Source of the DNA: Salvelinus alpinus
Lineage: Eukaryota; Chordata; Actinopteri; Salmoniformes; Salmonidae
Length of the DNA stretch: 64,000 nucleotides
Reading direction: 5' to 3'
NCBI RefSeq assembly: GCF_045679555.1
Contig: NC_092110.1
Coordinates: 496,001 to 560,000, forward strand
Under the pieces are notes generated by a model. The model saw only the letters and a list, made by a program, of their open reading frames with translations. It was not told the DNA's origin and ran no database searches. Position 1 is the stretch's first letter; each line of letters opens with the position of its first letter. Shown piece by piece: positions 40,301 through 43,300 of this stretch. A program made the position numbers and the translations under genes.

Positions 40301-43300
40301 GTTATTAGCCTACAGCCTAGTGAAAATTGCATTTGTTTTCGCTTACCTTTGGCTGAAAGAAGTCAGCCAGCTTGTTGGCCCTTTTCTCTCCCCTTGCACC
40401 TGGCTATCAGGGGGATTTCGGAAGGTTGTGGCTGTTTTTACTTCACCGCTTATTGTGGTGACTTTGTCACGGGGAACATATCCGATTCTCCGCTAAACAA
40501 ACCGACAAGCAAATAGGCCTAGTAGCGGAGATATAGCACCATGGATAGCACCGCGGTTGATCAAGTCCCCGGGGAATCTGGCGAGTCAAGCCTGTGCCCT
40601 CCTTTTTATTATTGTCCCATGGTGTTTCAAATGTCTCTAGTTCCTCAAGCGTGTCTGTGGACACAATGTACCAGCCATTTTGTTAACAGCGAGTAGCTGC
40701 GGTTGACATTTTGAGCCTCTGCCAGTTCCACAAAGATAGTTTGGAGATTGGTGAATGTGACTTGGAGATTGCCTACAGTAACTGCATTGAGAGGTCGCGT
40801 ATAGCCTATATGATGGTCAGCAATGCAGTTTATAGAAGTCATGCAAGTACGTTTTCTATTAGGGACTTTACGTTGAGTAGGCAAAATATGGTAGGTGGCT
40901 GACGTTGTGATGATTGGTCTAATGTAGGCTATGAATAAAGCCAGAATTGATATGTCTGGTTCATGCATGCAGCTATTCACATATGCATATTTTGTATTTT
41001 TGCGTCCGTTTTTCAATGATGGGTAGGCTACTTCGGTTTGACAGAGGATCATCAAATGAATATGAGTAGCTAAGAAATATAAGGACGCTTATTTCACTCT
41101 ACTTATCAACCACTTTTTGAGGAGCATGCTCTCGCTGTGCGACAGTTGACGTTTTGCCCAAACTCTGTATTGCCACGGGCTCTCCAACCCTGAACCAACA
41201 GCATGGCCTAGGGCTAAACGTTCTCTCCCAGACTCATGGATAGACATTTTGGAGCGTAGCATAAGGTAACCAGTCCATCCAGTATGCACATTAATACAGT
41301 CGACAATCAAAGGCTAGACCAATTATCTATCGACGACATCATAAATCAGTTTTGTTTTTCTACCATTCATAATATGCTGTAGTCTATGTACTGTATAACA
41401 GCTCAATCATCATTTTAATTCAGATAATTTTTTGGGACTTGGGCTCATAAGCCTATGTGTATGCATACTGTAAGCTGTAATATGCATATGGGTGTTTTTG
41501 AATTAATCATCAATTTAGAAAGCTGTCCATTTCATTGTTAGGCTTTGAAACATCTACAATGACCATGTTTTACACTCCGTTTCAACCTGCTGTTGAACTC
41601 CTTTCTTCAAATTGATCGTCAGTGTGGCGCGTTTTAAAAGCATGATACTGTTTTGATGATAAGTGTTTGTGATTTTCGATTGCATTTGCATTGATGTTAG
41701 AGGGACAATAGAGCCCTGAGTCGTTTGAAAGTTGGGTGTTACCAAAGACGAAGCATGTCCATGAATCATGACTGCCGGTGTGGTGGTAATACGATCACAG
41801 CAACAGCCCTAGGCACAGATCTAGGAACAGCCTGCTCTCCCCAGATCCTTACCTTAACCATCAGTGGGGAAAAATGCCAAACTGATCATTGTACAGAGCC
41901 AACTTCATTCTCCAAACTCTTGCACATCACTTATTCATCACTTGTTTTCCAGGAACCCCATGCTTCATCGACTCTGAGGGCGTGGTGCGCCTGCTAAACC
42001 GCTCCTTGGGAAACATGTGGACACCTGTGTGTAACACCAGGGAGAACTGCAAGGGCAAGTCAGACCACTACTGGGTGGTGGGAGTGCATGAGAATCCCCA
42101 GCAGCTCAGGTAAAGCAGTTGTTTCTCTTTGCTTATTTGAGCTGTTCTTGCTATAATATGGACTTGGTCTTTTACCAAATAGGGGTATCTTCTGTATACC
42201 ACCCCTACCTTGTGACAGCACAACTGATTGGCTCAAACGCATTAAGAAGGAAAGAAATTTCACAGATGAACTTTTAACAAGGCAAACCTGTTAATTGAAA
42301 TGCATTCCAGGTGACTACCTCATGCAGCTGGTTGAGACAATGCCAAGAGTGTGCAAAGCTGTCATCAAGGCAAAGGGTGGCTACTTTGAAGAATATAATA
42401 TATATTTTGATTTGTTTAGCACATTTTTGGTTACTACGTGATCCCATATGTGTATCAATAGTTTTGATGTCTTCACTATTATTCTACAATGTAGAAAATA
42501 ATACAAATAAAGAAAAACCCATGAATGAGTAGGTGTGTCCAAACTTTTGACTAGTACTGTACGTGTGCCAGGGGCAGCGGCTTAGACTGGTAGACCATCC
42601 TAGGCCACGTTGTTTTCTTTTCTACCTGGTAACTAATTAATCAATTTATGTCACTGATTGCCCTGATGAGATGGAGAGATAATGAAAAACAGCAGGACTC
42701 TGGCCCTCGAAGACCCGGTAATAGAAAATTAAGAGGTGTAAATTCTATAGTTAATCCATCTCTTCATCGTCTTTCCTCCAGGTGTATCCCATGTAAAGGG
42801 TCTCGGTACCCCCCCACGTTGCCCAGGCCTGCTGTGGCCGTCCTTCCCTTCAAGCTGCCCTTCTGTCAGACCACCACAGAGAAGGGCCAGATGGAGGTCA
42901 GTAAGGCTAAGTGCCAGATGGAGGTCAGTAAGGCTAAGTGCCAGATGGAGGTCAGTAAGGCTAAGTGCCAGATGGAGGTCAGTAAGGCTAAGTGCCAGAT
43001 GGAGGTCAGTAAGGCTAAGGGCCAGATGGAGGTCAGTAAGGCTAAGGGCCAGATGGAGGTCAGTAAGGCTAAGGGCCAGATGGAGGTCAGTAAGGCTAAG
43101 GGCCAGATGGAGGTCAGTAAGGCTAAGGGCCAGATGGAGGTCAGTAAGGCTAAGGGCCAGATGGAGGTCAGTAAGGCTAAGGGCCAGATGGAGGTCAGTA
43201 AGGCTAAGGGCCAGATGGAGGTCAGTAAGGCTAAGGGCCAGATGGAGGTCAGTAAGGCCAACCTATACAGTCCATGCTATGCTATTCCAGTCAGCTCAGC

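What the first reader, a model, noticed from the sequence alone, without database searches (positions are those of the whole stretch)
42885..43258. A splice donor turned into a 14-copy in-frame minisatellite in wdhd1
The 27-bp unit spans the exon 17/intron 17 junction (12 exonic + 15 intronic nt), so the array holds 14 equivalent 5' splice sites (GAG|GTCAGTAAG) every 27 nt from 42897 to 43248. 27 is a multiple of three and no copy contains a stop, so any donor joins exon 18 in frame and adds 0-13 copies of a nine-residue unit (VSKAKGQME or VSKAKCQME) at residue 721, between the SepB propeller and the helical segment of the replisome trimer hub. Array length could thus set the protein's linker length. 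The exon end matches human using the first donor, so the array arose by expansion of a normal donor.
Basis: partly seen in the sequence, partly recalled or inferred. Interest (0 to 1): 0.9.

Follow-up and report, generated by a model that had tools for sequence, protein, structure and literature searches.

The report
Fourteen tandem splice donors in wdhd1
The signal that marks the end of one exon in a fish DNA-replication gene has been copied fourteen times in a row without breaking the reading frame; similar repeats sit at other exon ends in the same genome, so it is most likely a mostly harmless side effect of repeat growth that might still lengthen the protein slightly.

Summary
The array is real: 14 x 27 bp at 42882-43259, with 14 identical GAG|GTCAGTAAG donors from 42897 to 43248, at the end of exon 17 of an apparently complete wdhd1 (AND-1). 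Every donor keeps frame and no copy has a stop. Human AND-1 has no insert, so the first donor is the ancestral one. The junction lies at the border between the SepB propeller and the Ctf4_C helical domain. The adaptive reading (array length sets a linker) is not supported. The same genome has other exon-end donor arrays: PCYT2 (47-bp unit, 26 donors, in-frame stop) and an unnamed gene, two copies of which carry one (27 to 122-bp spacings, stops); two more are possible. None of these is in frame throughout, so wdhd1's open frame is no more than chance would give (about 0.28). Frame-breaking arrays beside a conserved exon suggest that the first donor normally suffices. The type has a precedent: human IFI6, where two downstream repeat units also act as donors. 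Best reading: a donor-spanning minisatellite with the first donor dominant and perhaps minor isoforms of one to a few extra nine-residue units. No RNA data were available.

The parts
42882..43259 (+). 27-bp minisatellite, 14 units, spanning the exon 17 / intron 17 donor of wdhd1
42897..42898 (+). first (ancestral) GT donor of intron 17; its use gives the human-like TEKGQME|EQ junction
43248..43249 (+). 14th and last identical GT donor; its use would add 13 x 9 residues
42782..42896 (+). exon 17 of wdhd1 when the first donor is used (115 nt; 466 nt with the last donor)
43953..44084 (+). exon 18 of wdhd1, start of the helical (Ctf4_C) domain; its own donor read from the sequence
42897..43952 (+). 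intron 17 (1056 nt with the first donor, 705 nt with the last)
13292..55582 (+). wdhd1 (AND-1) span from the Met-containing match to the stop of the last matching frame; the full coding sequence was not assembled

Best explanation
A 27-bp segment covering the last 15 exonic and first 12 intronic bases of the wdhd1 exon 17 donor was tandemly duplicated and expanded to 14 near-identical copies. Shown: 14 equal donors, all in frame and open; ancestral protein from donor 1; one copy of exons 17-19 in the assembly; donor-spanning arrays at other exon ends in the genome. Inferred: the first donor, at an exon length of 115 nt, is used for most transcripts. The other 13 are tolerated decoys that can bind U1; because unit and frame agree, slips to a downstream donor give a mostly harmless insert of one or a few VSKAKCQME units between propeller and helical bundle, as reported for human IFI6. 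The open frame is a lucky or filtered property, not evidence of a device that sets linker length.
For: Array and donors. Ancestral junction in five human PDB sequences. Donor quality within the range of the gene's other donors: approximate matrix score 3.56 against 2.24-8.34 for the best candidate at 13 other exon ends (6 more gave no candidate above the script's cut-off; 82 of 3863 GTs in the window score as high); U1 pairing -8.2 kcal/mol against -5.6 to -11.6 for 11 other donors. Same-genome donor arrays that break frame: PCYT2, exon GLHFDQ|GTGAGT, 47-bp unit, 26 donors, stop in the first unit, further exons downstream; the L049 gene on C1, 17 clustered donors at spacings of 58, 75, 77 and 27, stop after 8 codons; its copy on C18, 3 donors in the 451 bases read, also with a stop, the exon identical over 49 of 49 residues. 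Possible further cases: L043, L044. Without an array in the stretches read (401-451 bases): the L049 exon on C6 and C16 and the PCYT2 copy on C2. Chance that a random period is a multiple of 3 with 4 open intronic codons: about 0.28. Precedent: IFI6 uses two downstream repeat units as donors, three mRNA species (PMC4526556, passage).
Against: No transcript data: donor use is inferred. For two equal donors the intron-proximal one is often preferred in vitro (recalled; two papers looked up are not held), which would favour downstream donors. The comparison arrays were found with donor-consensus patterns from the first places listed, so they are a small and biased sample; only PCYT2 and the L049 gene are confirmed as coding. 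Whether those copies make normal mRNA is not known; one of the four PCYT2 matches on C1 and all four on C2 span a stop, which may only reflect matches running past exon ends.
Confidence: 0.66

Rival explanations
1. Many donors are used to a substantial degree, so that wdhd1 mRNA is a mixture with 0-13 extra nine-residue units and allele length sets the average linker between SepB propeller and helical bundle.
For: Fourteen identical donors in nearly identical local context, all in frame and open; in the IFI6 precedent downstream repeat donors are used; two U1 snRNPs can sit on one pre-mRNA (PMC8724738 passages).
Against: Same-genome donor arrays with frame-breaking, stop-containing units beside conserved exons suggest that first donors normally win. 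SepB was needed for all AND-1 functions tested in DT40 (PMC6079002 passages), so large inserts there are likely to be costly. Exon 17 would grow from 115 to up to 466 nt.
Confidence: 0.2
2. The downstream donors are never joined to exon 18 but act as a cluster of U1 sites that strengthens recognition of exon 17 (decoy donors as splicing enhancers).
For: A consensus donor appended downstream raised splicing of a test pre-mRNA (BGSMN2) more than two copies of a strong enhancer, with more SRSF1 bound (PMC8724738 passages). The array holds 13 such sites next to the real donor.
Against: Not tested for decoys just downstream of the real donor of the same exon in the passages read; no RNA data here.
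Confidence: 0.07
3. The array is a nursery for a new intron by the AGGT tandem-duplication route: parts of it are themselves spliced out.
For: Each unit carries AG|GT. Tandem AGGT repeats have been reported to make introns, including 24-bp repeats in fission yeast (PMC4974935 passages).
Against: The 20 nt before the four unit AGs measured are 30-35% pyrimidine against 90-95% at the acceptors of exons 17 and 18.
Confidence: 0.03
4. Copy number or the array itself is an assembly error.
For: Near-perfect tandem copies are hard for assemblers; copy number cannot be checked here.
Against: The G/T variant is ordered (unit 1 G, 2-5 T, 6-14 G) and the unit occurs only here. Many similar arrays occur elsewhere in the genome.
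Confidence: 0.04

Closest known systems
[quoted passage not shown] paper not held)
   Same: A minisatellite whose units supply splice donors; according to PMC4526556 (passage) two downstream repeat units serve as donors and three mRNA species result.
   Different: Different gene and lineage (human interferon gene; fish replisome hub). The IFI6 unit is about 12 bp by my recall, against 27 bp here. Use of downstream donors is reported there, unknown here.
Internal tandem repeats at exon-intron boundaries in human segmental duplications (De Grassi & Ciccarelli 2009, PMC2812944; they cite their earlier PRDM7 work)
   Same: Minisatellites at exon-intron boundaries that can alter splicing, and in exons add amino-acid repeats (passages).
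   Different: Found in primate-specific segmental duplications by comparing paralogues; the passages read do not describe a long run of identical in-frame donors.
Intron gain by tandem duplication of AGGT segments (Rogers 1989 model; ATP2A1; fission yeast 24-bp repeats; potato RdRp; as told in PMC4974935)
   Same: A tandem unit containing AG|GT at a gene's splice junction (passages).
   Different: Here no good acceptor was found in the unit, and the intron sits where the human protein is contiguous across the junction.

Membership tests
Minisatellite providing multiple splice donors (IFI6 type) | The tandem array begins in a coding exon and runs into its intron | tested here: met
   Array starts at 42882, 15 nt before the exon end; human-like exon end at 42896
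Minisatellite providing multiple splice donors (IFI6 type) | Each unit carries an intact donor | tested here: met
   14 of 14 units, identical GAG|GTCAGTAAG; score within the gene's own donor range
Minisatellite providing multiple splice donors (IFI6 type) | Unit keeps the reading frame and is open | tested here: met
   27 bp, no stop in any copy
Minisatellite providing multiple splice donors (IFI6 type) | More than one of the repeated donors is used in transcripts | not testable with these tools
   No RNA data held; exons 17-19 each match once in the genome, so no spliced retrocopy records the junction
Minisatellite providing multiple splice donors (IFI6 type) | Copy number varies between alleles | not testable with these tools
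   One assembly, one array
AGGT tandem-duplication intron gain | Unit contains AG|GT | tested here: met
   GAG|GT in 14 of 14 units
AGGT tandem-duplication intron gain | Unit supplies a plausible acceptor with a pyrimidine tract | tested here: not met
   30-35% pyrimidine at the four unit AGs measured, against 90-95% at the acceptors of exons 17 and 18
Coding VNTR | Repeat retained in the mature mRNA and translated | not testable with these tools
   Frame is open but donor use is unknown

The most novel reading that the evidence does not exclude
This genome carries a whole class of splice-donor minisatellites, some perhaps kept since a genome duplication. wdhd1 is the member in which unit length and frame agree, so that donor choice and allele length give a graded series of 0-13 nine-residue inserts at the hinge between SepB propeller and helical bundle of a replisome hub.
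Probability: 0.17. Interest if true: 0.78.

Novelty: new member of a known kind. Interest (0 to 1): 0.47.

Why it matters
Fourteen identical donors in nearly identical local context, differing mainly in distance from the upstream acceptor, are a natural test of how the spliceosome chooses among equal 5' splice sites. The same genome offers frame-breaking arrays (PCYT2 and the L049 gene, with copies that lack the array) as controls. If donor choice is spread, a replisome hub that vertebrate cells need for proliferation (PMC6079002 passages) would carry a variable insert; if it is not, the arrays show how robustly the first donor wins. Gene prediction and protein databases for such fish may also be wrong at these exons.

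Tried and rejected
Rejected: (1) In-frame and open as proof of coding use: the chance is about 0.28. Of the three firm genes with donor arrays (wdhd1, PCYT2, L049) one is in frame throughout; with the two possible ones (L044, L043) it is one of five. (2) Donor-like tandem arrays as something rare: AGGTRAGT three times at 12-42 nt gaps gives 6896+6329 matches against 7784+7591 for the reversed control pattern. The stricter CAGGTGAGT three times gives 3175+2016 against 540+331, a sixfold excess, but the part listed is dominated by a few many-copy arrays. AGGTVAGT at period 27 gives 487+1081 against 342+392. (3) Duplicate or retrocopy of wdhd1 as a record of splicing: exons 17, 18 and 19 each match once. 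(4) AGGT intron birth inside the array: no good acceptor. (5) RNA folding of the array: mean unpaired probability of the 14 donors 0.23-0.58, no clear pattern.

Led nowhere: one search used a mistyped pattern, so its 0 matches mean nothing. NCBIfam gave nothing for L044 and L049. PDB gave only a chance-level match for L049 (E 0.43) and nothing for L044. A search of the genome with the L044 peptide found only itself. Papers on equal-strength donor competition were not held.

Sampling note: the first 100 places shown by each hold 20 distinct arrays by my count. I looked at the upstream flank of 12: 4 exon-like (L043, L044, L049, L088), 4 not (L045, L047, L048, C1:11812270), 2 unclear (L046, L087), 2 not resolved because the array runs to the edge or further upstream (L042, L051). 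Eight were not examined. Of the 4, PCYT2 (L088) is confirmed by homology and L049 by three other genomic copies. L043 rests on an acceptor and 18 open codons of low complexity, L044 on about 62 open codons in two frames; 1918 bases of the L044 flank read N. In one search I set aside one weak match at 53333-53599 (27% identity, with a stop) as spurious; human residues about 304-362, 821-914 and 972-1016 gave no match.

Full report
WHAT IS THERE. The window reads 14 head-to-tail copies of a 27-bp unit at 42882-43259. Each copy holds GAG|GTCAGTAAG, with donor G at 42897 and every 27 nt to 43248. The copies differ at one place (G or T in AAG[G/T]GCC: unit 1 G, units 2-5 T, units 6-14 G) and in the last base of unit 14. 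Translated in the exon frame the added unit is VSKAKCQME or VSKAKGQME, with no stop until after the array. Period and content are beyond chance (TRF score 726, 99% matches). With up to two mismatches the unit gives 13 matches in the 2.37-Gb genome, all in this array.

THE GENE. tblastn with a recalled human WDHD1 finds matches in order on the + strand from Met at 13292 to a last exon whose frame stops at 55582. Exon 17 (42782-42896) and exon 18 (from 43953) joined at the first donor match human AND-1 without a gap in five PDB sequences, 5gvb, 5ogs, 8b9d, 7pfo and 6xty. Pfam places the start of Ctf4_C at residue 35 of the exon 17-19 peptide, four residues before the junction; the weak Mcl1_mid match (E 0.033, below its cut-off) ends at residue 26. 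The crystal structure paper describes SepB as a six-bladed propeller fused to a C-terminal bundle of five helices (PMC5717350, passages); an insert would therefore sit at about that fusion. AND-1 is needed for proliferation of DT40 cells, and the SepB domain for all AND-1 functions tested (PMC6079002, passages). Exons 17, 18 and 19 each match once in the assembly: no second copy of this part and no retrocopy.

DONOR QUALITY. The repeated donor has C at +3, but its predicted U1 pairing runs on to +7, eight pairs around that mismatch. Its approximate matrix score is 3.56, within the 2.24-8.34 of the best candidates at 13 other exon ends; six further exon ends gave no candidate above the script's cut-off (recalled frequencies). 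U1 pairing is -8.2 kcal/mol against -5.6 to -11.6 for 11 other donors. Four AGs of the unit were measured as acceptors: 30-35% pyrimidine against 90-95% at exons 17 and 18.

OTHER ARRAYS IN THE SAME GENOME. Pattern searches show that tandem donor-like motifs are common. Twenty distinct arrays could be told apart in the first places listed; for 12 the upstream flank was read. Four of the 12 have an exon-like flank ending at the first donor, four do not, two are unclear and two are not resolved. Firm case 1, PCYT2: the exon ...GLHFDQ|GTGAGT matches ethanolamine-phosphate cytidylyltransferase (3elb, E 4e-10). The 47-bp unit carries 26 donors (24 consecutive matches of three donors), reading on gives a stop in the first unit, and further exons match downstream at 22916788, 22917070 and 22919271 (the first of these matches spans one stop, as do all four on C2, which may be matches running past exon ends). 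The copy on C2 has one donor and no array in the 401 bases read. Firm case 2, an unidentified gene (L049): exon ...FNHDTSQ|GTCAGT, 17 clustered donors at spacings of 58, 75, 77 and 27, stop after eight codons. The whole exon matches four places: C1 and C18 identical in protein, C6 and C16 88% and 86%. C18 also carries repeated donors (three in 451 bases, spacings 95 and 122); C6 and C16 show one junction and no array in the 451 bases read of each. Possible cases: L044 (40-bp unit, three donors) and L043 (31 and 29 bp, three donors).

WHAT THIS SAYS ABOUT MECHANISM. Arrays stand at real donors whether or not they keep frame: of three firm genes one (wdhd1) is in frame throughout, of five with the possible ones also one, near the chance value of about 0.28. 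In the L049 gene two copies, both with frame-breaking arrays, keep the exon identical in protein, so splicing from the first donor must suffice (inference; the age of that duplication was not measured). I therefore expect the first donor of wdhd1 to carry most transcripts, with downstream donors as tolerated decoys; because the wdhd1 unit is in frame, errors are mild and may give minor isoforms. [quoted passage not shown] the original paper of 1995 is known to me from its title and from memory). Against this, in vitro work on equal donors often favours the intron-proximal one (recalled), and no RNA could be examined.

STATUS OF CLAIMS. Shown: sequence, frame, homology, uniqueness of the unit, one copy of exons 17-19, other arrays. 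Inferred: donor use, mode of expansion, effect on protein. I did not find this array in print. The search with WDHD1, tandem repeat, salmon, splice and Oncorhynchus found 1,844 papers with three of the five terms; none of the 15 listed holds WDHD1. The search for minisatellite and splice donor in teleosts found 24, of which I saw 10 in the listing. Searches looked for minisatellites at splice donors in general. Only CC0, CC BY and CC BY-SA papers were searched.

VERDICT. A new member of a known kind, made more interesting by its siblings in the same genome.

Noticed in passing
L088 (G000:C1:22914650-22915250): PCYT2 exon donor expanded into a 47-bp minisatellite with 26 donors and in-frame stops; the PCYT2 copy on C2 (L092) has a single donor in the 401 bases read.
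   Followed up: yes
L049 (G000:C1:115832549-115835610) and L089 (G000:C18:48687500-48687950): Two copies of one gene both carry irregular donor-spanning repeats at the same exon end, while two more diverged copies (C6, C16) do not: the array may predate the duplication that made the C1/C18 pair.
   Followed up: partly
L043 and L044: Two further possible exon-end donor arrays of three copies each; both are followed by other long repetitive stretches downstream.
   Followed up: partly
window 20398-20545: A perfect (GT)74 run just upstream of a wdhd1 exon (the match to human begins at 20555), close to where its acceptor must be.
   Followed up: no
window 58614-59036: Reading frame that looks like GTP cyclohydrolase 1 (GCH1), downstream of wdhd1 on the same strand (recognised from recall).
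   Followed up: no
window about 26364-26801, 36222-36776, 49381-49740, 61281-61808: Remnants that read like Tc1-type transposase and LINE-type reverse transcriptase in wdhd1 introns and flanks (recognised from recall).
   Followed up: no
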